From Actinomycetes bacterium (GTDB taxonomy: Bacteria; Actinomycetota; Acidimicrobiia; Acidimicrobiales; RAAP-2), in the NCBI GenBank assembly GCA_021778895.1, contig JAJYBR010000002.1:62001-126000 (forward strand): DNA of 64,000 bases, in the 5' to 3' direction. How positions within the stretch are numbered: the stretch's first letter is position 1; each line of letters opens with the position of its first letter. Shown here one piece after another: positions 42,148 through 56,147 of this stretch. The notes below the pieces were generated by a model, which worked only from the letters and a program-made list of their open reading frames with translations, ran no database searches and had not been told where the DNA came from. Both the position numbers and the translations under genes were made by a program.

Positions 42148-44235
42148 TCACGACAGCGAGCGCTCGACCACCTGGCTGATGTCGAGCACGGCGACGTCGT
42201 CGCCGCGCCCCTGGGCCTTGACGGCGTCGTCCAGCATGATCATGCAGAAGGGGCAGGCCGTCGACACCACGTCGGCCCCGGTCGAGAGGGCCTCCTCGGT
42301 GCGCTCCATGTTGACGCGCTTGCCGATGTGCTCTTCCATCCACATGCGCGAGCCGCCCGCGCCGCAGCAAAAGCCGCGCTCGCGGTGGCGCGCCATCTCG
42401 ACGGTGGTGACGCCGGGCACCGCGGCCAGCACGGCGCGGGGCTCGTCGAAGACGCGGTTGTGGCGCCCGAGGTAGCACGGGTCGTGGTAGGTGACCGTGC
42501 CGGTGAAGCTCACGCCGGGGGTGAGGCGGCCCTCGGCGACCAGGTGGCCGAGCAGCTCGCTGTGGTGGATGACCTCGTAGGAGCCGCCGAGGTCCGGGTA
42601 CTCGTTCTTGATCGTGTTGAAGCAGTGGGGACAGCTGGCGACGATCTTCTTCGCCCCCACCGAATCGAGCGTCGCCACGTTCGCCTTGGCCATCTCCTGG
42701 AACAGGTACTCGTTGCCGAGGCGCCGCGCTGGGTCACCGGTGCACGACTCGCGCTCGCCCAGGATCCCGAAACTCACGCCGGCCCGGTGCAGCATGCGGG
42801 CCGTCGAGACGATCTGCTGGCGACCCCGCTCGTCGAGCGATCCGGCACAGCCCACCCAGTAGAGGTACTCGACGTCGTCGGGGATCGTGCCAGTGAAGAC
42901 GGGCACCTCGAAGTCGAGGGCGCCCAGCCACTCAGTGCGCTTGGAGGACCCCAGGCCCCACGGGTCGCCCTGGTTCTCGAGGTTGCGCAGCAAGAGGGCA
43001 GCCTCGGAGGGGAAGCGCGACTCCATGAGCACCTCGTAGCGGCGCATGTCGACGATGGCGTCCACGTGCTCGATGTCGACCGGGCACTGCTCCACACAGC
43101 TGCCACACGTCGTGCACGACCACAGGACGTCGGGGTCGATGACCCCGGGCACCAGGCGCTCGACCTCACCCTCGCCGCCGAGCAGCGAGTTGGCCGAGGA
43201 GAAGAGGTTCTCGCGCAGGCCCATGATGAGGAGCTTCGGCGAGAGGGGCTTGCCAGTGGTCCAGGCCGGGCACACGGACTGGCAGCGGCCACACTCGGTG
43301 CAGGTGGTGAAGTCCAGCATCTGCTTCCAGGTGAAGTCCTTGATGGTCCCCACCCCGAACACGGTGTCCTCGGTGACGTGCTCCATGTCCATGTCGGGCG
43401 TCTTGTCGAGGGCCCCGAGGGCCCGGGGACGGCGCGAGAAGGCGATGTTCACCGGCGCCATGAAGATGTGCAGGTGCTTGGAGTACGAGACGAACACCAG
43501 GAAGCCGAGGATCACGGCGATGTTGGCCAGGAGGAAGACGACCTCGAGGACGTTCGCCACGCCCAGGCCGAGCGGCGCGAACCAGTGGGCGACGATCTGG
43601 GAGGCGAAGGCCCACGGTGAGGCGTGCAGCTCGTTGGCCGCAACGTTGATCGGGCCGCTGAGCGAGCTGTGGTACACGGCGCCGATCGTGCGGGGGAACG
43701 GGAAGTGGCCGCTCGCGATCTGGGCGCCGCGGTAGCCGAGCAAGGTGATGATGACCAAGGCGATCATCGCCAGGGTGAACCACGCCGCCTTCAGATGGCT
43801 GCCGTAGAAGCGGCTGGCCCGGTCGCGCCGCGAGGGTGCCTGGCGGATGCGGATGATGGTGAAGACACACAGGGACACCAGCACCGCGACCGAGAAGAAG
43901 TCCTCGAGGAAGGCCAGCCAGTTGTCCTGGCCGATGAGGGGGATGTGGAAGCTGCGCGAGAAGAGGGCCCCGTAGGCCTCGACGATCGTGGCGAGCAAGA
44001 TCGCGAAGCCCCACATCGTGAAGAAGTGCGCCACGCCGGGCACGGTCCAGCGCAGGAGCTTGCGTTGCCCGGCGACCTCCACGACCTCGGCTTCCGCCGT
44101 GCGCGCCAGGCTGTTGCGGCGTCGGGGTGCCGGTTGGCCCGAACGCACGAGCCGCGAGAGCCACCAGAAGCGCCTTCCGGCGACCGCCCCACCCACCAGC
44201 GTGATCAACAGCCCGATGATGATCCGTGCGGCCAC
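42148..44235 (-). CDS. Membrane-anchored Fe-S oxidoreductase (heterodisulfide-reductase-like)
   Basis: A 695-residue protein: about five N-terminal membrane helices resembling a cytochrome b/NarI-type domain (1-250), two 4Fe-4S motifs ([12 protein letters not shown] and [12 protein letters not shown], about 310-395) and two C-terminal CCG-type cysteine blocks (CAGS..., [31 protein letters not shown]). Such fusions pass electrons between quinones and a soluble partner, often for beta-oxidation or lactate/glycolate metabolism. GGAGGGCGCC precedes the ATG. Partner unknown; next to dcd by chance or co-transcribed (15 nt). Confidence 0.88.
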
Positions 44236-45417: not shown

Positions 45418-45443
45418 GCACCCCGGCTACGATGGGTGGCCAC

Positions 45444-45517
45444 GCGGGTGTAGTTCAGCGGCAGAACATCAGCTTCCCAAGCTGAGAACGCGGGTTCGAT
45501 TCCCGTCGCCCGCTCCA
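45444..45517 (+). tRNA. tRNA-Gly (CCC)
   Basis: Acceptor GCGGGTG pairs with CGCCCGC (one G-U), anticodon stem TCAGC/GCTGA around TTCCCAA with anticodon CCC at 45476-45478, T-loop TTCGATT normal, CCA encoded at 45515-45517. It marks the start of an accessory region with lower GC and mobile elements, a common integration position, although no matching direct repeat of its 3' end was found downstream. Confidence 0.95.
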
Positions 45518-45998
45518 AGACGAGTTGGACGTAATCCCTTCATTCGTAAGGGTTTCGTGGTGTCCGCCACGCTCCGTGAGTCACCCCCACTGTCCTCTGC
45601 TACCTGCCCGAAACCTGCCCAACGACGCCATGACTCCATCCTTGTTTCCAAAGTCGGGAGCCTCCAACCAACCCAGGGCGATTCAGGGCGTCGTCCCGAG
45701 AAGATCACCGCGAGGCAGGCCTGTAATGGGCCACGACCTGTAGTCACGGGTCGGGCTAGCTTCTGATCAAGCCATCGGAGTGAGCAACCTGGTCGACGTC
45801 GTCCACCACGCGGTGCGAACAGATCCTGGTAAAGGCGCCCCCGAGGGGCCAGGCGATTCATGAGTCACGCGCCACACAGCAGACGATGTCAACCCTGCCG
45901 CAGCCAGCCCCAGGCCGGCTATCGCAACACTTGCAGGCGGTTCAGTCCGAGAACTTCCGGAATCGCCAAGACTTGCGGAACATCAGCAAATGCAGTCC
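45518..45998. other. Island boundary region, no gene called
   Basis: About 480 bases after tRNA-Gly. A minus-strand open frame (45469-45861) overlaps the tRNA and looks spurious. A weak hairpin AATCCCTT-N7-AAGGGTTT with a short T-run (45533-45555) could terminate the tRNA transcript. The stretch may hold a degraded integrase remnant, but nothing is recognisable. Confidence 0.45.
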
Positions 45999-47252
45999 TC
46001 ACAGGACTTTGAGGACAATGAACAAACTAGTCGCGGTGCATAGAAGACTCACGATTGACACAAGCACAGCGATGCGTGTCAGCTGAAAATCCCAAACTCG
46101 ATCCAACTCACTATCCATCATGTCGGCGTATTCGCGAATTCGGTTCTCGTAGCGAAGAACGCCCGACTTCTCCGTGATGAGGTGCAGCATGTCATTGACC
46201 TCTTCAACGTCCGAGTCTCTCAGGGAGTCCAAGTAGCCTCGTACACGAATGTGGGCTGACTGCAGATTCGAGGTGACCAGCTCACGCCACACCACATGAC
46301 TTCGAGGAAACAGGCTCCTTCTCTTGGCTGTTTGCCGCTTGGCCTGCTCGGCCCTGATGTCCGTCACCAATGTATCCGCCAGCACAATTCGCTCGAGAGC
46401 GTTCTCACACGCGAAGAAGACACCGTGGTCCAGTCCCGCCACGTCGAACTCCGTTCCGAAGTACTCCTTCGCAGAACCGAACCTCTCCAAAAAGAATCCC
46501 TGCTGCCGCTCCGCGTAGTCAGCGGTCTTCGTATTGAATGCCACGACGGCGCGCCCATATGCCATCACCTGCAGAAACTCGCGAGAACTCCAGAAGTTGG
46601 ACACCACCGCCTTGGCTCGGGAACTTGGCACGTGGCGCCATCCTTCGTCGCCCGTCAGTAGACCGTATGTCACACGATGCACTTCGGACTGGAGGGCATC
46701 GGACTCGAAGCGATCCAGCATGCAGTCTGGTCCACGCAGCTCGAGAATGCGATAGCCGTAGTGCCGCCCCAACGCTTCCTCACTACAGTCGAAGAACTCG
46801 CTCATGCATGAGACCAGCAGATGAGCGATGGACGATCGTCCAATGCCAGCGACTTCGGCCGATCCCTTGGTGGGCGTCTCCCATGAGAGACCACCGTGGC
46901 TATGTATCAGGCTGATGAGCAAGTCGACGTCAGCCCGGTCGGCCAGATCGATGGCGAGCGTCTCCATCACGAAGCCCGTGAACATATTGCAGCTGAGCAC
47001 CAGGGATCCCGAGAGCGTTACGCCAGGGAGCGCGATCGCTGGGGAATCGGCGAAGATGTAGCGGGTGATGTCCCTGGCCATGTCTCCAACTGCCGACTGG
47101 ATCACGAGGTCGAATTCGCGACCCAGCGGTATCTGGAGACCGACAGGGTTGATCCTGCCTTCACCGAGTCGCTGCTGCACCGCCTGCTCGAGCACCGCCG
47201 GATCCCGGTGCCAGGCCAGCGAGAAGCACGCCAGCGAACGTTCGATGTCCAT
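45999..47252 (-). CDS. Uncharacterised protein with C-terminal membrane anchor
   Basis: A 417-residue protein not recognised as any family. The N-terminal two thirds are soluble and helical (GREFDLVIQSAVGDMARDITRYIF; SGSLVLSCNMFTG), then a charged coiled-coil segment (EVNDMLHLITEKSGVLRYENRIREYADMM, partly listed) and one C-terminal membrane helix (about 391-414: IAVLVSIVSLLCTATSLFIV). This tail-anchored shape resembles CorA- or RMD1-like topology without clear homology. It follows the methyltransferase by 8 nt in the same direction. GC is about 55%, well below neighbours, suggesting transfer with its partner. Function unknown. Confidence 0.65.
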   Translation of the reverse strand: MDIERSLACFSLAWHRDPAVLEQAVQQRLGEGRINPVGLQIPLGREFDLVIQSAVGDMARDITRYIFADSPAIALPGVTLSGSLVLSCNMFTGFVMETLAIDLADRADVDLLISLIHSHGGLSWETPTKGSAEVAGIGRSSIAHLLVSCMSEFFDCSEEALGRHYGYRILELRGPDCMLDRFESDALQSEVHRVTYGLLTGDEGWRHVPSSRAKAVVSNFWSSREFLQVMAYGRAVVAFNTKTADYAERQQGFFLERFGSAKEYFGTEFDVAGLDHGVFFACENALERIVLADTLVTDIRAEQAKRQTAKRRSLFPRSHVVWRELVTSNLQSAHIRVRGYLDSLRDSDVEEVNDMLHLITEKSGVLRYENRIREYADMMDSELDRVWDFQLTRIAVLVSIVSLLCTATSLFIVLKVL

Positions 47253-47260
47253 GATCGCCT

Positions 47261-48028
47261 TCAGCCTTTGGGAAGTCGCTCGGCAATGACAGCCACGTCT
47301 CGGAAGCCCTCCGGTGCCCCCGAGGCATCTACGAGCGCGTGGAAGGGCAGTACGTCCGTCACGGTGAAGCCGCTACCTTCGACCGTGGCTACCAGCCGCT
47401 CCCGCGTGAAGAAGTGAACGGGCAGTTGGCCCTCAACCGACGCACCCGCCAGTCGCTCGAACGTGTCCCTATCAATAGCAGTCTCCTCCCACATACGTCG
47501 CGCATTGAATCGATTCAGTGTGAATCTCTCCTCGGCCAATGCTTCGAAGCAGGTCGCGATGTACAAGAGCCCTCCGGGCCTCAGTTGCGTACTCACGTCT
47601 GTCATGATGCCCGTCATGGTGGTTTCGGTGACGTGCTGGAAGACGTGACTTATCAGGACCACGTCATATGGGGCGTCTACGCACCCGTTGGGCCAGTGCT
47701 TTGTTACCTTGAATCTGCTTGCAGGCAATCCAATGGCCCGGCACCCTTTCGTGAGGCCGGCGCGGCGGTTGTCGTCAGGCTCAACGAGCCTTCCCCGCTC
47801 AAAATAGGGAGCGAGCTGAAAAGCGAGTCGACCCAGTCCCGCACCAAGGTCAAGCACATTTCTCGGTGTCGGAAGCTCCAGGATTCGCTGTGCTAAGGCG
47901 AGAATAACGCGCTGCTCCTGGTCAGTCCATTGCTGGAAATCACTGATGGAAGTGATCATCGTTGCGGTGATCTCGTCATTAAGGTCAGGATAGAAGTATT
48001 CAGTTGGTTGGGACTCGTGACGGCGCAT
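47261..48028 (-). CDS. Class I SAM-dependent methyltransferase, island cassette
   Basis: A 255-residue methyltransferase: motif I NVLDLGAGLGRLAFQLAPYF (core DLGAGLGR), acidic ribose contact in VEPDDNRR, and motif LRPGGLLYIATCFE. An N-terminal segment (YFYPDLNDEITATMITSISDFQ) precedes the SAM domain. It heads a two-gene unit with the membrane-anchored protein. GC near 55%. The upstream region ends 72 nt away at the left end of an IS3-type element, which may supply or disrupt its promoter. Target (protein, lipid, nucleic acid) unknown. Confidence 0.75.
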   Translation of the reverse strand: MRRHESQPTEYFYPDLNDEITATMITSISDFQQWTDQEQRVILALAQRILELPTPRNVLDLGAGLGRLAFQLAPYFERGRLVEPDDNRRAGLTKGCRAIGLPASRFKVTKHWPNGCVDAPYDVVLISHVFQHVTETTMTGIMTDVSTQLRPGGLLYIATCFEALAEERFTLNRFNARRMWEETAIDRDTFERLAGASVEGQLPVHFFTRERLVATVEGSGFTVTDVLPFHALVDASGAPEGFRDVAVIAERLPKG

Positions 48029-48100: not shown

Positions 48101-48127
48101 TGGGAGCCTGACCCGCTAACTCGGACA
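48101..48127. repeat. IS3 element left terminal inverted repeat
   Basis: 27-bp repeat starting TGGGAGCCTGACCC; it matches the right end inverted with one inserted base in the G-run. Confidence 0.85.
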
Positions 48128-48142
48128 GGTTGGTTGTGGTGA

Positions 48143-49004
48143 TCATGCCAGGAGATCACGGACGTGCGCTTCGAAGGATACCTCGAGCTCGATCGGGCTG
48201 ACGTTCCCGATCGAGGTGTGTCGGCGGACCGGGATGAAGAAAGCCTCGATCCACTCAAAGATGGCCGCCGCGAGTTCGGCCTTGGTCTCCCAGGTGTCGC
48301 GCTCCAGCAACTCGCGCTGCATCGTCGACCAGAAGCTCTCCATCATCGTGTTGTCGACGGACGAGGCAACCTGGCCCATCGAGCCGAGGTGTTGCGAGGG
48401 CCGGTTGAATCCACCCTAGGCGCCTCTATCGGCGTGGACGATGCCGCCGGCGTCGGGCTGGCGGCGCCAGATCGCCATCTGCAGGGCGTCGACGACCAAC
48501 TCGCTGCGCACGTGGTCCGCGATCGACCAGCCCACGATCCGCCGGCTGAAGACATCGAGCACCGCGCCGCAGTAGACGCGTCCGTCGCTCGCGCGGTGTT
48601 CGGTGATGTCCGTGACCCAGAGTCGGTTCGGCTCGTGGGGAACGAAGCGACGCTTGACGAGGTCGTCGTGGGTCGCCGGCGCCGCTCGCCGTCCTCGCTT
48701 GCGGCGGTGACAGACCCCTTTGGATGCCCGCGCGGCGCATCAACCGCGCGATGCGCTTGCGCCCGACGTGGTGCCCCCGACCAAGACGCAGTTCGGCGTG
48801 GACACTCGGGGCCCCGTAGGTTTCGCGGGACAGGGCGTGGATCTCGGTGATCTCGGCCAGGAGCCCCTCGTCGGCCGCGTCCCTCGCCGATGGCGAGCGG
48901 GTGTCGCGGTCGTAGAAGGTGGAGCGAGGCAGGTTGAGCACCCGGCAGGTCAGCGCGACGGGGAAGCCCTCGTGCGCCAGCTCTCGGACCAGCGGGAACT
49001 TCAT
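48143..49004 (-). pseudogene. IS3 transposase orfB, broken
   Basis: The N-terminal part (ATG 49004, MKFPLVRELAHEGFPVAL) is the IS3 HTH_21 region. At about 48,720 one extra base (A-run CCAAAGG on the minus strand) shifts the frame: the intended GVCHRRKRGRR becomes GLSPPQ. The continuing core frame, with VTDITEH and the second Asp in HADRG, is then stopped in frame by TAG near 48,415. The last part, GSMGQVASSVDNTMMESFWS with the DDE glutamate, lies in the same frame after that stop. All three catalytic acids exist but not in one protein. Confidence 0.88.
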
Positions 49005-49008
49005 TTTG
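49001..49008. repeat. 8-bp target duplication, left copy
   Basis: TCATTTTG immediately left of the ISL3 element, repeated at 50381-50388. It is the IS3 orfA/orfB junction sequence; 8-bp duplications are standard for ISL3 elements. Confidence 0.92.
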
Positions 49009-50380
49009 GGCTCTCCTGCCGTTCATGTGGGTAGGTGGGGGCGCTGACCACTGAGTGTGAGCCTCGCGAGGGCGATGAGGGCACCAACGTGATGGAAGCC
49101 GAAGGCTCGACGGGCGATGAGTCGTATCTTCGTGTTGAACGACTCGACGAGCGCGTTGGTGAGACCGACCTCGATCGTGGCGATGATCGCCGCTCGGTGG
49201 TTGCGGATCTTCCTGGCGAGCTCGGTAAAGGAGGGGATTCGACTGCGCTGAGCCCAGGCGATCCACCGATCCAATGCGACGACGGCCCCGGGGCCGTGAC
49301 CGGTGACGGCGGTGCGCAACCCCTCCTTCAGCGCCCACGCCCGGTGCAGTCGCGGATGGGTGGCGGCGATGTAGTCGAGTCGAGCCCGGTCCTGGTCGCT
49401 CCAGTTCTCGGGATTCTTCCAGAGGGCGAAGCGCGCGTCCTTGAGCACCTTGCCGGCACCGCGGGGCTTGCGGTGCACGTGGCGCGGACGGTGGACGCGG
49501 ACCTCGTTCCACGTCTCTCGGCGCACTCGGTCGAGTGCCTCGGCCGCCCAGGTGACGACGTGGAAGGTGTCGAGGCAGATGATGGCGTGAGGGCAGTGAT
49601 CAGCGACCGCGGCGTTGATCCAGGGTGCCCCGTCGCAGCTGACGTGGGTGATCTGCTCACGGCCGTCCTCCCCGAGTCGGTCGAAGAACGCTCCCAGCGT
49701 CTCGAGGTTGGCGCCCTTCACGGCGTGCACGAGGCGTCGCCGATCGTGGTCGACCACGACGAGCAGGTAGCGGTGGTGCTTGCGATAGCTGATCTCGTCG
49801 ATCCCGATGCGCCGCAGGCCCACGAGGAGCTCCTCGTCGCTCAACCCTTCGGCGACGCGGGCCACGATCGAACCGATCGTGCGCCACGTGCAGCGAAGTA
49901 GGCGGCTGGCCGCGCTGGCGGACATCTCAACGCCGCACCAGGCGGCGAGCTGCTCGAAGGCACGAGTATGTCGGGCAGCGTGCCGCGCGAACGGCACGCT
50001 CGCCACGACGACCCCGTGGTCGGCGCACTCGACCCTGGGCACCGTCGCGACTACGAAGACCTTGGAACGTCCCCAGTCGATCGCTCGCCAGCGGCGCTCG
50101 CGCCCGGCGTCATAGCCGGGGCACCGCTCGGCGCAGTGCGGACATCGCCAGCGATGCCGGATTCGCGGTCGAAGGCGGATAACGATGTGGTCATCGACGA
50201 GCTCGACTGACTCCACACGAACGCTCCTGGCATCGACGCCCAGCGTCCGGGCCAATAGTCTTTGGGACAGCACGCCGTCTCCTCCTTGTTCTCAGGCTTC
50301 AAGCACCCGAAAACCTAAGGCAGGGACGGCGTGTTCTACGTCACTGGCTCCATTCGACCCACACCATTGGCAGGAGAGCC
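49009..50380 (-). mobile_element. ISL3-family insertion sequence
   Basis: A 1,372-bp element with terminal inverted repeats starting GGCTCTCCTGCC (12 perfect bases, about 20 of 24 overall), one transposase gene and a perfect 8-bp target duplication. It sits between IS3 orfA and orfB. The intact ends and intact transposase imply a recent insertion, and it may be active. Confidence 0.92.
49023..50273 (-). CDS. ISL3-family transposase
   Basis: A 416-residue DDE transposase. An N-terminal zinc-finger-like CPHCAERCPGYD is followed by a helix-turn-helix region and the ISL3 catalytic core: Asp in IGIDEISYRK, Asp in HVSCDGAPW and Glu in LVESFNTKIRLI near the C-terminus. GTG start at 50273; the stop is 14 nt from the left repeat, a normal compact layout. 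No frameshift. Terminal repeat ends flank it. Confidence 0.92.
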   Translation of the reverse strand: MLSQRLLARTLGVDARSVRVESVELVDDHIVIRLRPRIRHRWRCPHCAERCPGYDAGRERRWRAIDWGRSKVFVVATVPRVECADHGVVVASVPFARHAARHTRAFEQLAAWCGVEMSASAASRLLRCTWRTIGSIVARVAEGLSDEELLVGLRRIGIDEISYRKHHRYLLVVVDHDRRRLVHAVKGANLETLGAFFDRLGEDGREQITHVSCDGAPWINAAVADHCPHAIICLDTFHVVTWAAEALDRVRRETWNEVRVHRPRHVHRKPRGAGKVLKDARFALWKNPENWSDQDRARLDYIAATHPRLHRAWALKEGLRTAVTGHGPGAVVALDRWIAWAQRSRIPSFTELARKIRNHRAAIIATIEVGLTNALVESFNTKIRLIARRAFGFHHVGALIALARLTLSGQRPHLPT

Positions 50381-50388
50381 TCATTTTG
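50381..50388. repeat. 8-bp target duplication, right copy
   Basis: TCATTTTG directly right of the ISL3 element, identical to 49001-49008. Confidence 0.92.
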
Positions 50389-50668
50389 GGAGAACGTTCT
50401 CCCTCGCGAAGAACGCCGACGCGCGCTTGAGGATCTCGATCTCCATGTCCTTCACGCGAAGCTCGCGTCGGAGGCGCACCAGTTCTGCGCGCTCGTCAGT
50501 CGTCAGGCCTTCACTGCGGCCTTCGTCCATGTCGGCCTGGCGGATCCAATTGCGCAGACAGCTCTCCGAGATGCCGAGGTCCGCAGCGATCTGGGCGATT
50601 GGCTTGACCTTGGCGCGGGCGAGATCGATGGCTCGACGCCGGAACTCCGGTGGGTGAGCACGGGGCAT
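50381..50668 (-). CDS. IS3 transposase orfA
   Basis: A 95-residue HTH_Tnp_1 protein (MPRAHPPEFRRRAIDLARAK, ISESCLRNWIRQADM, leucine-zipper-like RRELRVKDMEIEILKRASAF). The ATG at 50668 has AGGAG upstream; a start at 50698 adds ten residues. Its stop TGA lies in the 8-bp sequence duplicated by the ISL3 insertion, so orfA is complete. In the uninterrupted element orfA's stop overlaps the orfB ATG (ATGA). Confidence 0.88.
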   Translation of the reverse strand: MPRAHPPEFRRRAIDLARAKVKPIAQIAADLGISESCLRNWIRQADMDEGRSEGLTTDERAELVRLRRELRVKDMEIEILKRASAFFARENVLPK

Positions 50669-50709
50669 CTGGACTCCTCGCTCAGCTGGGCGTCCCAACT
50701 GAAGTTAGG

Positions 50710-50735
50710 TGTCCGAGTTAGCGGGTCAGGCTCCA
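50710..50735. repeat. IS3 element right terminal inverted repeat
   Basis: 26 bp starting TGTCCGAG and ending GGCTCCA, inverse of 48101-48127. Confidence 0.85.
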
Positions 50736-50846: not shown

Positions 50847-51536
50847 TCATTCAAACCGGACGCGAGTGGCAGATGCTTCGAGCACCGAACCATCCTTCGC
50901 CGAGCGCGTGTACACGACGAGGACTCCATAAGAGCTCGTTGGCTCGGGGTAGGCGAGGGTTCTGGCGAACGGCGCCATTTTGCCCATGGATCCACCCATC
51001 GCCGTACCTTGAGCGAGGGCTGCCGTCGAGTCATCTTGGTACAGAGCGAGGTTGATCACTGCCTCGAAGGCCGTGCTGCGACCGCTCACCCGTAACGGCG
51101 ACGAGACCGTCGCGAACTGCTCGGGTACGTCGATCTGCACCTCGCCCGCGATCGAACCGAGGACCCACCAGCTGGTATCGCTCGCGAGCTGGCGCACGAG
51201 AACGATCGTCGTCGGCCCGGTCGCGTCGGGTTGGATCGGCACCTCGCCCGAGCGCGAGTCGCCCTGCTGGAAGGACTGGGCCACCGGGCTCGCCATCTTC
51301 AGCACGTGACGCGCGAAGGCGAGAGCGGCCGACGTCGGACTCCCGTACCGCAGCGCCGTCGCGGGGTTGGGCCACAAGGACATCCACGTCCCGTCGCCCG
51401 TCGTCGTGGTGACCGGTGCCGTGGTCGTCGGCGTCGTCGTGCGCGGAACCTGGTGCAGCGCGTAGCCACCGGCGAAGGCCCCACCCATCAGCACGACCAC
51501 CAGCAGGATGAGTGACGCGCGTCGTGCGCCGGTCAT
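50847..51536 (-). CDS. Membrane-anchored protein with Gmad2 immunoglobulin-like domain
   Basis: A 229-residue protein: N-terminal membrane helix (about 7-27), Thr/Pro-rich linker, an intermediate domain, and a C-terminal Gmad2-type domain (about 135-229: VPEQFATVSSPLRVSGRS ... FEAVINLALYQD ... GVLVVYTRSAKDGS). Gmad2 domains are extracellular Ig-like folds seen in sporulation and cell-surface proteins. A TAGGGT -10 box ends 6 nt before the ATG (leaderless). It lies next to the island but has host-like GC. Confidence 0.8.
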   Translation of the reverse strand: MTGARRASLILLVVVLMGGAFAGGYALHQVPRTTTPTTTAPVTTTTGDGTWMSLWPNPATALRYGSPTSAALAFARHVLKMASPVAQSFQQGDSRSGEVPIQPDATGPTTIVLVRQLASDTSWWVLGSIAGEVQIDVPEQFATVSSPLRVSGRSTAFEAVINLALYQDDSTAALAQGTAMGGSMGKMAPFARTLAYPEPTSSYGVLVVYTRSAKDGSVLEASATRVRFE

Positions 51537-51542
51537 GACCTC

Positions 51543-51548
51543 ACCCTA
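51543..51548 (-). promoter_or_regulatory. -10 box, leaderless promoter of the Gmad2 protein
   Basis: TAGGGT on the minus strand ends 6 nt before the ATG at 51536. Confidence 0.5.
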
Positions 51549-51669
51549 TGAAAGGGTCCCCGCCACTGCCAAGAGATTGTCCCTATCGCCGCGATCGGAG
51601 TTGCCATGGGTGGTCCCGTCCCGTCCCCGCTTGCACCGCAGGTGGACGCGGCGGCTGTGGCGCTGCTCG

Positions 51670-52335
51670 TCAGGTCTCGCGCGGATCCTCGACGTCTGTG
51701 CCTGCGCCGCGACGTGCGCTGGGAGCGACGGGAAGCTGGATGTTGAAGCGGAGGCCCACGATCCGGATGGCGAAGCAGACGATGAATCCGACGAGGGGGA
51801 AGACCAGGCTGTGCGAGCCGGCGGCGTGTGCCCCGACCACGACGGCGGCACCCGCGAGCGCGGGCACAGCGTAGAGATCGTGCGTCAGCACGGTGGGGAT
51901 CTGGCGGAGCAAGACGTCGCGGAGCATGCCCCCGCCGATGCCGGTGATCGCTCCGAGGATGATCGCCTGGGCCGGACCCAGACGGAACTGGATCGCCTTG
52001 TCTGCCCCCGTCACGCAGAACAGCGCCAGCCCCGCGGCGTCGAAGACCTGGATGACGTTCCAGATCCGCTCGAGGACCTGCCGGGCGACGAACGTGGCGA
52101 GCCCGGCACCCCCGGCGACGGCCAGGTAGCGCCAGTCGCGGAACGTGGCCGGGGGGGATCCAATCAGCAGATCCCGGATGATGCCTCCGGCAACGGCGAC
52201 GACCAGGGCCAGGACGAGCACCCCGAACAGATCGAGACGCGCCCGGACCGCGGCGAGCCCGCCGCTGAGGCCGAACACGAAGGTGCCGATCAGATTCAGC
52301 CAAAGGATCAGCGTGGGGTCGAAGCCCTGGACCAT
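51670..52335 (-). CDS. TRIC-family (UPF0126) membrane protein
   Basis: A 221-residue protein of two homologous three-helix repeats plus an extra helix: DLFGVLVLALVVAVAGGIIRDLLI (first repeat core) and DAAGLALFCVTGADKAI then ITGIGGGMLRDVLL (second). This is the YicG/TRIC fold, a trimeric intracellular cation (K+) channel type. ATG 52335 chosen with AAGGA upstream; a longer frame into the M20 gene is a shadow. Divergent from the M20 gene. Confidence 0.88.
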   Translation of the reverse strand: MVQGFDPTLILWLNLIGTFVFGLSGGLAAVRARLDLFGVLVLALVVAVAGGIIRDLLIGSPPATFRDWRYLAVAGGAGLATFVARQVLERIWNVIQVFDAAGLALFCVTGADKAIQFRLGPAQAIILGAITGIGGGMLRDVLLRQIPTVLTHDLYAVPALAGAAVVVGAHAAGSHSLVFPLVGFIVCFAIRIVGLRFNIQLPVAPSARRGAGTDVEDPRET

Positions 52336-52365
52336 ACGTGGCATCCTTGCCCAAAGGAGGTGACC

Positions 52366-53634
52366 ATGTCTATTGACGACGCGATCCAGACCGTCCTCGG
52401 TGGGCTCGACGGTCTCACGCCCGATCTCGAGGACTTCTACCGCGACCTCCACTCCCACCCGGAGCTGTCGCTGCAGGAGCACCACACGGCAGACCGAGCG
52501 GCCGCGTGGCTTCGCCGCGCCCGCTTCGAGGTCACGACCGGCGTCGGGGGGACTGGCGTGGTGGCGGTGCTGGCCAACGGCAGCGGACCAACGGTGATGC
52601 TGCGCGCCGACATGGACGCCCTACCGGTGCAAGAAGCGACTGGTCTTCCCTACGCCAGCGTCGCGGTCGGTACCGACGGCGAGGGCAACCAGGTGTCCGT
52701 CATGCACGCGTGCGGGCACGACATGCACGTGACCTGGCTGGCCGGCGCCGCGAGCCTCCTCGCCGCAGCGCCCGACGCGTGGCACGGCACGGTGCTGGCC
52801 GTGTTCCAGCCGGCCGAGGAGACGGCGCAAGGTGCGCGAGCGATGGTCGATGACGACCTGTTCCAACGCTTCCCCACACCCGAGGTGGTTCTCGGCCAGC
52901 ACGTCATGCCCGACGAGGCCGGCCAGATCACACTTCGACCGGGGACGACGCAAGCCGCGGCCGACAGCCTGCACGTGCGCATGTTCGGGCGCGGAGCCCA
53001 CGGCTCGATGCCCGAGTCGAGCGTCGACCCCGTGGTCATGGCAGCAGCAACGGTCATGCGGTTGCAGACGATCGTGTCGCGGGAGACCGCGCCGACCCAG
53101 GCCGTGGTGGTCACCATCGGCGCCCTCGCGGCCGGCACCAAGGACAACGTCATCCCCGACGAGGCAGTGCTGAAGATCAATGTCCGCAGCTTCGATGAGG
53201 ACGCGCGGCACCGGACCCTCGACGCCATCGCGCGCATCGTCACGGCCGAGGCCCAGGCCTCGGAGGCACCGCGGACGCCGGAGATCACCGCCACCGAGCA
53301 CTACCCCCTGACCGTGAACGACCCCGAGCGCACCGGCCGCGTGGCCAACGCCCTGCGGGCCCACTTCGGTGACGACCACGTCGCCGAGCTGGCCGCACCG
53401 AAGTCCGCCAGCGAGGACTTCGGCACCTACGGCAGCGAACTCGGCGTCCCGTCGGTGTTCTGGTACGTCGGGGGCGTCGATCCCAGCGTCTACCGTGCCG
53501 CCCAAGCGGCGGGGCGCATCGCCCAGGACATCCCCACGAACCACAACCCGGCCTTCGCCCCCGTGCTGCACCCCACCCTCGAGACGGGTGTCCGGGCCAT
53601 GGTCGTCGCCGCCCTCGACGCCCTGGCCACGTGA
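52366..53634 (+). CDS. M20-family metal-dependent amidohydrolase
   Basis: A 422-residue M20D-type hydrolase (N-acyl amino acid amidohydrolase or IAA-amino-acid hydrolase-like). Metal and catalytic sites: HACGHDMH at 114-121, PAEETAQGA with Glu151-Glu152, and the dimerisation domain with GAHGSMPE. A perfect AAAGGAGGT at 52353-52361 sets the ATG 52366. The long upstream frame crosses the TRIC gene and is excluded. Substrate unknown. Confidence 0.9.
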   Translation: MSIDDAIQTVLGGLDGLTPDLEDFYRDLHSHPELSLQEHHTADRAAAWLRRARFEVTTGVGGTGVVAVLANGSGPTVMLRADMDALPVQEATGLPYASVAVGTDGEGNQVSVMHACGHDMHVTWLAGAASLLAAAPDAWHGTVLAVFQPAEETAQGARAMVDDDLFQRFPTPEVVLGQHVMPDEAGQITLRPGTTQAAADSLHVRMFGRGAHGSMPESSVDPVVMAAATVMRLQTIVSRETAPTQAVVVTIGALAAGTKDNVIPDEAVLKINVRSFDEDARHRTLDAIARIVTAEAQASEAPRTPEITATEHYPLTVNDPERTGRVANALRAHFGDDHVAELAAPKSASEDFGTYGSELGVPSVFWYVGGVDPSVYRAAQAAGRIAQDIPTNHNPAFAPVLHPTLETGVRAMVVAALDALAT

Positions 53635-53728
53635 ACACTCGGGCCACGTCCCGGGTCGATGCTGCTACCAGCACCGCACCCACTACCTCCTACGCGGTGA
53701 GCCCACGGTCCGGGAACCGGTTCACGCG

Positions 53729-54208
53729 CTAGGGCGCGGTGTCGTCCGAGACGACCTTCCATCCCGTCGGCAGGTGGACCACGGTAGCCCAGGTCACCGT
53801 CGACCCGACGACCGGGTACGGACGATGCCGCACCTGGACGAGGACGGCCGCGTTAGCCGTCTTTGGCACGACACCCGTGTAGCCGGCCCGGCCCCCGCCC
53901 GAGTTGAGGCACCAGTGAACACCGGTGCGCTCGAGCACGGGGTTGAGGATCCGCATGCGGTTGCCGATGACGGTCACGGGACTGAGGTGCCGGCGGGCGT
54001 AGTACCGCACCAGGGTGGACCGGACAACCGGGCTCACGGGCTTGATGTGCCAGGTCGCCAGAGTCGGGCAGCGCGGCAGCTTCGCGGCCAGCGCCGGGGT
54101 GCTGGCCACGGGCAGGACGAGGGGCAGGGCGAAAACGGCTCCGACGAGGGCGGCGACCGGGGCCGCGTGCCCACGGATGGACCGAACGGAAGCATGTCTA
54201 CCGAACAT
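53729..54208 (-). CDS. Secreted protein, unknown family
   Basis: A 159-residue protein with an N-terminal signal (MFGRHASVRSIRGHAAPVAALVGAVFALPLVLPVASTPALAAK, partly cited) and a mature part with two cysteines (LPRCPTLA and VHWCLNSGGG). GGAGG precedes ATG 54208; longer frames are unlikely. Looks like a small exported beta-rich protein. No family recognised. Confidence 0.6.
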   Translation of the reverse strand: MFGRHASVRSIRGHAAPVAALVGAVFALPLVLPVASTPALAAKLPRCPTLATWHIKPVSPVVRSTLVRYYARRHLSPVTVIGNRMRILNPVLERTGVHWCLNSGGGRAGYTGVVPKTANAAVLVQVRHRPYPVVGSTVTWATVVHLPTGWKVVSDDTAP

Positions 54209-54431
54209 GGCGCCTCCACTGTGACGAGGCCCCGGGCGGATTTTCCGTCTCATTCGCAAACTACGCCGTGGTGCCCCGGCAGTCCAGTCAGACGAGCGCG
54301 ATTCCGACTCAAGCTCGCCGCCCGGCGTCGGCACCTCCCCGCGAAGCAGGCGAGGACCGGTCGCTCGTGGATCAGCGGCGACCGGAGGCAGCCTGTTCGA
54401 GCATTGCCACCTAGAAGGGTGCCCGAGGACC

Positions 54432-56147
54432 GTGCCCTACCGCGTTCTCGCGCAAAGCCCGAGCTCGTTCGGCGTCCGTTATGTTGACCTCGTGGGGGTC
54501 CCCATCCGACATTTCGTCGTCCTCGGGACCCTTCTCGCCAGCACTCTCGTCACCCTGTCCTCCCGACCCGTTGTCACAGCCGGCGCGACCTCGCCCGGCG
54601 TGACGCCGGCGGCGGCGTTGACGTCGACCTCGCTCGGCCTCCACACGCAGATCGACTCGATCGACATGGTCACGGCGACCAGTGGCGTGGCGGTGGCCCG
54701 GGATGCCACTGCGGGCGGGCGTCATCGCTTCTACCTGGCGCGAACGACGACGGCAGGAACCAGCTGGCGCGTCGTCGGCTCGCTGCCGTATCCGCCGGTC
54801 ACCGGGGCGACGCTGACCACGAACCCCACGCTCCACTTCGTGAGCTCGTCGGTGGGCTACGTCTCGACGCCTGCCTCCGGACCGGTCTTCGTCACCACCA
54901 CCGGCGGTCGCCGGTGGGCGCGCGTCGCCATCCCGGGGCGCTGGCCGACCATTGCGGTGGGTACGTCCACCGTCTTAGTCGTGGGCGACCGCTGCTCTGG
55001 CCCGCTGCCCGACTACGGCCCCCTGCAGTGCCCGAGCGCCGTGTCGCTCTATCGCGCCGGTCACGCGACACCGGAGGCCACCTTCGCCGTCCCTGACGTG
55101 AGTCCCGGAGGCTGGCGTGCTGCCGTCGCCCTGGCTCTGCCTGCTCCCGCAACGCCGATCGTGCGCGAGGGCGGATCCCAGCCCGGTGCGCCCGGGATCC
55201 TGCTTGAGTCGACGAACGCGGGTCGGACGTGGTACCGGCTCGAAAATCCGTGCGGCCAGCTGCTCATCCAGCAGCTCCTGACGCCGTCGCCCCGGCGCTG
55301 GCTGCTCTCCTGCTTCCTCGACGGAGGCATGGAGCAGGGGACGAACCGGCTCTGGGCGTCGACCGACGGAGGTCAGCACTGGACCCTCCTGGCGTCATCC
55401 GGCGAGCAGCGGTTCTACGTGGGCAACATCGCCGACACTTGGAACACCCTCGCCGTCTCGGGCAACGGTCAAAAACTCTTCAGCGCGGTCGGAGGAGCGG
55501 GAGGCGGAGTCGAGGCCAGCCCGGACGGTCGGCACTGGACCTTCGCCCGATTCAACCCGCAGTCCGGTGGCGCACCGGAGTGGATCGACACCTTCGGGGC
55601 AACGGGAGCGCTGTTCGGCGCCCAGCTCGGCACGGTGTGGCGGACGCTGGATGGCGTCACGTGGTCGGCTCTCCGGCTGCCCGCGGGCCGCTATCGCGGG
55701 CTCTCGATCTGCACGCAGGGTGCGGGGGTCCACGCCGCCGTCGGACGTACCCGGGACGTGCAGGGGACGGCCTACCGCACCGTCGTCTTCACCAACCAGA
55801 GCCACGACAGCTGCTACCTGAGTGGAGTCCCCAATGTGCAGCCGGTGGCGGGCGTCTCGCACTCGACTGTCGGGCCCGAGGCCACGGCGAACTCCTCGGT
55901 GGGAGGCGGGTACGTGGTGTTGCCCGCGCGAGGGGGTCACGCGAGCATCTCCCTGGCGATGCAGCGTGCCACCAGCGTGCCGCGCGGGTCGTGCCGCGTT
56001 CGCTCGGCCACCGGTGCCGTCATCTCCTTTGACCCCCCGTCCCGCTTCTTCGTCTCGTCGGGTGGTCACCCGTGGCCGGTCTGCGCTCTGGTCGCGATGG
56101 TGCAGTCGACGGGCGTCGTGCCCACCACGGTGAGAGTTCCGTGGTAA
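54432..56147 (+). CDS. Secreted beta-propeller protein with C-terminal DUF4232
   Basis: A 571-residue exported protein. After a hydrophobic N-terminal stretch (VVLGTLLASTLVTLSS) come BNR/sortilin-like repeats with S-x-D/N-x-G-x-x-W cores (ESTNAGRTWY, ASTDGGQHWT, ASPDGRHWT), suggesting a propeller of about 350 residues. The C-terminus resembles DUF4232 (CTQGAGVHAAVG, FTNQSHDSCYLSGVPNVQP). A GTG at 54492 would start nearer the signal core; 54432 is used. Function unknown, perhaps surface sensing or binding. Confidence 0.72.
   Translation: MPYRVLAQSPSSFGVRYVDLVGVPIRHFVVLGTLLASTLVTLSSRPVVTAGATSPGVTPAAALTSTSLGLHTQIDSIDMVTATSGVAVARDATAGGRHRFYLARTTTAGTSWRVVGSLPYPPVTGATLTTNPTLHFVSSSVGYVSTPASGPVFVTTTGGRRWARVAIPGRWPTIAVGTSTVLVVGDRCSGPLPDYGPLQCPSAVSLYRAGHATPEATFAVPDVSPGGWRAAVALALPAPATPIVREGGSQPGAPGILLESTNAGRTWYRLENPCGQLLIQQLLTPSPRRWLLSCFLDGGMEQGTNRLWASTDGGQHWTLLASSGEQRFYVGNIADTWNTLAVSGNGQKLFSAVGGAGGGVEASPDGRHWTFARFNPQSGGAPEWIDTFGATGALFGAQLGTVWRTLDGVTWSALRLPAGRYRGLSICTQGAGVHAAVGRTRDVQGTAYRTVVFTNQSHDSCYLSGVPNVQPVAGVSHSTVGPEATANSSVGGGYVVLPARGGHASISLAMQRATSVPRGSCRVRSATGAVISFDPPSRFFVSSGGHPWPVCALVAMVQSTGVVPTTVRVPW

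What the first reader, a model, noticed from the sequence alone, without database searches (positions are those of the whole stretch)
45999..48028. Two-gene methyltransferase / tail-anchored protein cassette in a tRNA-Gly island
Seen: a class I SAM methyltransferase and an unrecognised 417-residue protein with coiled coil and one C-terminal membrane helix, 8 nt apart, at about 55% GC inside a ~70% GC chromosome, beginning right after tRNA-Gly(CCC) and ending at a transposon. Tight pairing of a modifying enzyme with a membrane-anchored partner in such a place is a common form of uncharacterised defence, immunity or surface-modification cassette. The function is inference only.
Basis: partly seen in the sequence, partly recalled or inferred. 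Interest (0 to 1): 0.62.

Follow-up and report, generated by a model that had tools for sequence, protein, structure and literature searches.

The report
Orphan methyltransferase–membrane protein island cargo
Two foreign genes of unknown function, one for a methyl-transferring enzyme and one for a protein tied to the cell membrane, sit beside a transfer-RNA gene where related bacteria keep swapping mobile cargo that often includes anti-virus and toxin–antitoxin genes; the pair itself was found in this genome only.

Summary
The two genes are real: a generic class I SAM methyltransferase (47261-48028, -) and, 8 nt later, a 417-aa orphan with one C-terminal membrane helix (45999-47252, -), both 58% GC. 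They lie between tRNA-Gly(CCC) and an IS3-type element carrying a nested ISL3. The 481 bp next to the tRNA are mobile-element debris: an attachment-arm region like that of a pSAM2-type element, an IS3 end and an IS110 end. In the genus this tRNA is an integration hotspot: its 3' end recurs downstream, in places as tandem 1-2 kb cassettes. In the nearest relative the same interval holds an Argonaute and an Mrr nuclease. The 417-aa family was found in one other genome only, elsewhere on its chromosome, truncated, with no methyltransferase detected. The shared 606 bp are 94.6% identical and under purifying selection (dN/dS 0.17), while flanking genes are more diverged, so it moved horizontally and was a working protein. 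Pairing beyond adjacency is not shown; structure prediction failed. Best reading: an undescribed conflict or defence module, cargo of a decayed tRNA-Gly element, inferred from location. The hotspot is of a known kind (AICE/CIME accretion).

The parts
45444..45517 (+). tRNA-Gly(CCC), attachment site of the hotspot
   Evidence: ARAGORN and Rfam; about 45 bp of its 3' part recur downstream in related genomes; no second copy found in the window genome
45518..45622 (+). attachment-arm-like region of an integrative element (inverted repeat AATCCC..GGGTTT; TGCCC repeats at 45605 and 45616)
   Evidence: 45427-45622 (tRNA included) is 81.6% identical to the tRNA-to-integrase region of the pSAM2-type element in G030 (L032); 45474-45555 is 85% identical to the tRNA fragment and its sequel in G696 (L063); repeats
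45628..45685 (-). remnant of an IS3-family terminus (58 bp)
   Evidence: four copies, 83-98% identical, in three other genomes of the genus (L069, L070, L040, L071); in L070 it overlaps the start of an ORF with a transposase HTH_Tnp_1 domain; two plasmid matches lie under IS3 transposase annotations
45687..45949 (-). remnant of the non-coding end of an IS110-family element
   Evidence: 72-75% identical to about 260 bp on Rhodococcus plasmids; on two of these (L073, L074) it lies about 40 bp from the start of a DEDD IS110 transposase fragment, on a third (L076) only the first residues of that transposase remain, on a Microbacterium plasmid (L075) none is seen
45999..47252 (-). 417-aa orphan protein with one C-terminal membrane helix (tail-anchored type)
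   Evidence: no Pfam, NCBIfam, PADLOC, plasmid or phage match, no significant PDB match, one PHROG at E 0.12; one relative, L002
47261..48028 (-). class I SAM methyltransferase (Methyltransf_23 type; motif DLGAGLG; no [NDS]PP[YFW] and no PC[QN])
   Evidence: Pfam E 7e-13; motif check
48103..50734 (-). IS3-type insertion sequence bounding the island, interrupted by the ISL3 element; no 3-bp target duplication seen
   Evidence: 25-bp perfect inverted repeats, HTH_21 in the 192-aa ORF, flanks
49009..50380 (-). ISL3-family element nested in the IS3-type element; 8-bp target duplication TCATTTTG
   Evidence: DDE_Tnp_ISL3 E 7e-67; imperfect 24-bp ends; duplication

Best explanation
The two genes are horizontally acquired cargo of a decayed integrative element at the 3' end of tRNA-Gly(CCC). 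Most likely they form a small accessory conflict module (anti-phage, anti-plasmid or toxin-antitoxin-like). Proposed mechanism: the cytosolic methyltransferase, translated first and probably coupled to the next gene, methylates a small molecule, RNA or protein, possibly its partner; the tail-anchored protein is the membrane-bound effector or sensor whose activity depends on that modification. Shown: gene anatomy, mobility of the 417-aa gene, island context, purifying selection on part of the 417-aa protein. Inferred: that the two act together, the defence role, and every biochemical step.
For: Same-interval comparison: in the closest relative found (G696/G1058) the same tRNA-Gly is followed by a PIWI/Argonaute (PADLOC pAgo_I, E 1e-143), and the same right flank (window 51677 onward, 80% DNA identity) is preceded by a tRNA fragment and an Mrr endonuclease (Mrr_cat, E 3e-22), in place of the pair; the two contigs are not joined. 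Of 20 cargo proteins that I picked from the hotspot in other genomes and scanned one by one, 8 matched PADLOC at E<=1e-8 (with the Argonaute, 9 of 21), against 2 of 20 picked chromosomal proteins of the window, both generic by Pfam: a ClpB-type AAA protein and an O-methyltransferase. Toxin-antitoxin genes (MazE, ParE, Phd/YefM) occur in the tandem cassettes of G028. Mobility: 606 bp are 94.6% identical in G696 at another site, dS 0.15, against 0.47 for dcd and 0.33-0.51 for three other flanking genes. Function maintained: dN/dS 0.17, bootstrap 95% 0.07-0.33. The methyltransferase stop codon overlaps a GAAGG ribosome-binding-like sequence before the 417-aa start.
Against: Neither protein hits a defence family specifically; the methyltransferase's mad2 hit (E 4e-12) is exceeded by an ordinary O-methyltransferase of the window (E 2e-13). 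The cargo-versus-control difference is not significant alone (8/20 v 2/20, Fisher p 0.065); I picked both sets, several loci because they showed att copies; some hits are generic helicase or ATPase matches, and two of the eight (L043, L047) look like relatives of each other. Other cargo is not defensive (S9 peptidase, PucR-type regulator). Co-occurrence of the two genes elsewhere was not found. No second att copy, integrase, Rep or FtsK was found in the window.
Confidence: 0.42

Rival explanations
1. Ordinary metabolic or envelope cargo: the methyltransferase modifies a metabolite, lipid or glycan, and the tail-anchored protein is a membrane scaffold or regulator of it, with no role in defence.
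For: The methyltransferase is of a generic type (Methyltransf_23; weak OvoA-C, UbiG and TehB similarity, all far below cut-off) and lacks DNA-methylase motifs. The hotspot also carries non-defence cargo (S9 peptidase, PucR-type regulator, ABC-transporter ATPase).
Against: No biosynthetic neighbour in the island; the same interval in the nearest relative carries Argonaute and Mrr.
Confidence: 0.3
2. Two unrelated cargo genes that happen to be neighbours in an island shaped by insertion sequences; only the 417-aa gene is a selected unit.
For: The 417-aa gene occurs in G696 at another locus, and no methyltransferase relative was detected there; the DNA beside the pair is a patchwork of IS remnants.
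Against: 8-nt spacing, overlapping ribosome-binding-like sequence, equal GC (58.2 and 58.1%). The G696 copy is cut near a contig end, so its upstream gene cannot be seen.
Confidence: 0.2
3. The pair is a toxin-antitoxin-like unit stabilising the element, with the membrane protein as toxin and the methyltransferase as its neutralising enzyme.
For: Toxin-antitoxin genes are among the cargo of the same hotspot.
Against: Both proteins are larger than usual toxins or antitoxins (general knowledge); no match to toxin families.
Confidence: 0.08

Closest known systems
Actinomycete integrative and conjugative elements (AICE, pSAM2 type)
   Same: tRNA 3' end as attachment site; the region beside the tRNA is homologous to the tRNA-to-integrase region of an element in G030 that has a tyrosine integrase, RepSA (Pfam E 1.3e-97) and FtsK/SpoIIIE. 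PMC3218068 (passages seen) reports that the vast majority of AICEs with tyrosine recombinases sit at the 3' end of a tRNA gene.
   Different: No integrase, RepSA, FtsK or second att copy was found in the window: a remnant only.
CIMEs (cis-mobilisable elements) and tandem accretion
   Same: Integrase-less cargo beside a tRNA att site; sibling genomes have tandem cassettes bounded by tRNA 3' fragments. CIME definition seen in passages of PMC5704250.
   Different: The window lacks the second att site that defines a CIME; the cassettes in G028 are only 0.9-1.9 kb.
MADS (methylation-associated defence system), protein Mad2
   Same: PADLOC mad2 hit over residues 38-168 of the methyltransferase (E 4e-12).
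   Different: Only the generic methyltransferase core matches; a chromosomal control O-methyltransferase scores better.

Membership tests
AICE (pSAM2-type element) | integrase next to the attachment site | tested here: not met
   tblastn of the G030 integrase finds nothing below E 2.7 in the window
AICE (pSAM2-type element) | replication initiator (RepSA type) and FtsK-like translocase | tested here: not met
   tblastn of the G030 RepSA and FtsK: best window E 6.8 and 1.4
AICE (pSAM2-type element) | integration at the 3' end of a tRNA gene | tested here: met
   tRNA-Gly plus arm region homologous to the G030 element
CIME | both attL and attR retained | tested here: not met
   one copy only in the whole assembled genome, up to 3 mismatches over 35 bp; assembly 94% complete
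CIME | no integrase or transfer genes | tested here: met
DNA restriction-modification methyltransferase | [NDS]PP[YFW] (amino) or PC[QN] (C5) catalytic motif | tested here: not met
   absent from the 255-aa protein; the motif definitions are recalled
MADS | specific Mad2-type match above generic methyltransferases | tested here: not met
   E 4e-12 against E 2e-13 for a chromosomal control methyltransferase
MADS | other mad genes adjacent | tested here: not met
   the 417-aa neighbour has no PADLOC hit; the ORFs on the other side are transposases
New two-gene defence system | conserved pairing across independent genomes | tested here: inconclusive
   417-aa family in 2 of 99 genus genomes and 2 of 172 family genomes, own genome included; the second copy is truncated near a contig end and no methyltransferase relative is found in that genome
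New two-gene defence system | protection against phage or plasmid | not testable with these tools
   needs an experiment

The most novel reading that the evidence does not exclude
A new membrane-associated defence module: a non-DNA methyltransferase paired with a tail-anchored protein of an undescribed family, exchanged through an integrase-based cassette hotspot at tRNA-Gly that works, in effect, like an integron without attC sites: 1-2 kb integrase-less cassettes, some with their own arm-like sequences, stacked in tandem and probably mobilised in trans by pSAM2-type integrases.
Probability: 0.2. Interest if true: 0.68.

Novelty: new member of a known kind. Interest (0 to 1): 0.38.

Why it matters
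The 417-aa family has no relative in the collections searched except one truncated copy, yet it is under purifying selection and moves horizontally, and it lies where the nearest relative keeps Argonaute and Mrr. It is therefore a fair candidate for an unknown immunity or conflict gene. The hotspot itself gives a direct way to find more such genes: read every interval between dcd/tRNA-Gly(CCC) and the next core genes in this genus.

Tried and rejected
Structure of the 417-aa protein: two AlphaFold2 runs (one sequence; two sequences) gave mean pLDDT 39.4 and 35.7, pTM 0.28 and 0.27, so no fold search was made. The order-wide hit G307 (E 4.9e-4, 35% over residues 18-106) lies in an ORF that I recognise by eye as encapsulin-like; among 397 genomes this is a chance-level match and I dropped it. 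The 12 weak genus hits (E 0.005 to 0.28, 35-111 residues each) were not pursued. PDB search: nothing significant for the 417-aa protein (best E 0.12), nothing at E<=1e-3 for the methyltransferase. Plasmid and phage protein searches: no match for either protein; viral contigs: no close relative of either, nor of the G030 integrase. Mad2 membership of the methyltransferase rejected by control. A sigma-70 promoter and terminator scan found nothing; a TATACT sequence 8 nt before the methyltransferase start could be a leaderless-type promoter but I see no good -35. No IS3 3-bp target duplication. I considered that the 263-bp intergenic match to Rhodococcus plasmids might be an RNA gene; Rfam gave nothing and its place beside IS110 transposase starts explains it. 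In the dS comparison I dropped one ORF (53369-54487; dS 0.31 but dN 0.33, probably not a real gene). Literature: four listing searches showed no description of this tRNA-Gly hotspot; I saw passages of two papers only.

Full report
What is there. The window lies on contig C5 of a 1.8-Mb assembly (94% complete). The nearest named record met is an Actinomycetes metagenome bin, DBS1-1.bin55; it appears as G696 and, at the same contig coordinates, as G1058 of the same genus, and I treat the two as one genome. On the minus strand run a 255-aa class I methyltransferase (47261-48028) and, 8 nt on, a 417-aa protein (45999-47252). The methyltransferase matches only generic models (Methyltransf_23 E 7e-13; 19 NCBIfam hits, all far below cut-off) and has no DNA-methylase motif. 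The 417-aa protein matches nothing in Pfam, PADLOC or NCBIfam and only a PHROG at E 0.12; it has one strong hydrophobic segment, at its C-terminus. Both genes have 58% GC, against 65-70% for the seven neighbouring genes compared.

Distribution. Searches for the 417-aa protein at E<=1e-3, own genome included, found 1 of 61 relatives; 2 of 397 of the order, the second a chance-level match; 1 of 395 of the class; 1 of 396 of the phylum; 2 of 172 of the family. In the genus, 14 of 99 reached E<=5, of which only the own genome and G1058 are convincing. These samples overlap. The genome-contig scan, which with a single protein finds close relatives only, gave one locus (L002). Plasmids, phages and viral contigs gave none. 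The methyltransferase has only superfamily-level matches: 29 of 61 relatives at E<=1e-3 (best other E 5e-6); in the genus 4 of 99 at E<=1e-5 including its own, best other E 2e-7, none in G1058.

The one relative. In L002/G696 the gene is cut near codon 225, about 120 bp from a contig end, where the sequence carries TGTACA-type repeats. Over 192 shared codons there are 30 nucleotide and 11 amino-acid differences, dN/dS 0.17 (bootstrap 95% 0.07-0.33). Its dS of 0.15 is below that of four genes from both flanks of the island in the same two genomes (dcd 0.47, 42148-44235 0.44, 51508-53634 0.33, 54432-56147 0.51; partial alignments). In G696 it stands beside a gene that I take by eye for an ABC-transporter substrate-binding protein, not at the tRNA. 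So it spread by a route other than the core genes, and it was a working protein for most of the time since the copies split.

The site. In G696 the same tRNA-Gly (C19) and the same right flank (window 51677-56145, 80% identity, on C9) bracket different content: an Argonaute beside the tRNA and, on C9 after a tRNA 3' fragment, an Mrr endonuclease. The two contigs are not joined, so the middle is unknown. DNA of the dcd/tRNA-Gly region matched 78 of 80 genus genomes (capped list), and copies of the tRNA 3' end lie downstream in several. Of 19 genomes from which I took stretches, 7 show extra copies in the stretch (one of them only 40 bp at 90%), plus G696; I chose some of them because one search had listed such copies, so this is not a frequency. 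In G028 (L034) four copies follow the tRNA at 0.9-1.9-kb steps, with a fifth at the contig end; between them lie a DUF4143 ATPase and toxin-antitoxin genes (MazE and ParE by Pfam, others by eye). G030 has the full machinery: a tyrosine integrase next to the tRNA, RepSA and FtsK/SpoIIIE. The window's 45427-45622 is 81.6% identical to that tRNA-to-integrase region.

The gap between tRNA and genes is debris: an arm-like region (to 45622), an IS3 end (45628-45685) and the non-coding end of an IS110 element (45687-45949), which on two Rhodococcus plasmids lies about 40 bp from a DEDD IS110 transposase start, on a third beside the first residues of one (there an annotated IS3 transposase follows), and on a Microbacterium plasmid beside none. 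No second att copy exists in the assembled genome and no integrase was found in the window. The far side is an IS3-type element with an ISL3 element inside it. So the island is a one-ended remnant.

Function. I picked 25 sizeable cargo ORFs (about 190 aa or more) downstream of the tRNA in the fetched loci, leaving out mobile-element genes and ORFs that looked spurious, cut or beyond the island. Twenty were scanned one by one with PADLOC: 8 hit at E<=1e-8. The Argonaute hit (9 of 21). The other four (L037:7928, L041:4437, L041:9064, L046:482) were scanned only in the pooled, whose capped table does not name members. Of 20 ORFs picked as chromosomal controls from the 32 listed, 2 hit, both generic; if some controls are not real genes, their rate is too low. 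Fisher p for 8/20 against 2/20 is 0.065: suggestive only. The inference for the pair rests on location, on selection and on the lack of any other lead; I put it at 0.42. That the two genes work together rests on spacing and the overlapping ribosome-binding-like sequence alone.

Known or new. The hotspot is of a known kind: AICEs at tRNA 3' ends (PMC3218068, passages) and tandem accretion of integrase-less CIMEs (PMC5704250, passages). The 417-aa family is undescribed in the libraries searched. The finding is a new member of a known kind (island cargo) with an orphan at its core.

Noticed in passing
L034:4195-9263 (G028), also L033, L035, L036, L040: Cassettes bounded by about 45-bp copies of the tRNA-Gly 3' end, tandem in L034; several copies are followed by arm-like repeats (TGACC, TGCCC) although no integrase was recognised in the cassettes. 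Looks like repeated accretion of integrase-less elements carrying toxin-antitoxin and other genes.
   Followed up: partly
L030:2-1162 and L063:779-1786: Nearest relative G696 has an Argonaute (cut at the contig end) and an Mrr endonuclease at the equivalent tRNA-Gly island.
   Followed up: partly
L032:3720-7711: pSAM2-type element at tRNA-Gly in G030 (integrase, RepSA, FtsK), a possible source of the recombinase for the hotspot.
   Followed up: partly
window 45687-45949: Non-coding end of an IS110-family element preserved as a 263-bp remnant, 72-75% identical to Rhodococcus plasmid copies; by general knowledge such ends can encode bridge RNA, which was not tested.
   Followed up: partly
L049:3484-7274: Several gene pairs that look by eye like toxin-antitoxin modules, with integrase fragments, between dcd and tRNA-Gly in G007, that is upstream of the tRNA rather than downstream.
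   Followed up: no
L041:6512-8640; L035:3532-5272: Hotspot cargo proteins with no Pfam hit at E<=1e-3 and no PADLOC hit at E<=1e-8: 398, 311, 373 and 214 aa, further orphan candidates at the same site.
   Followed up: no
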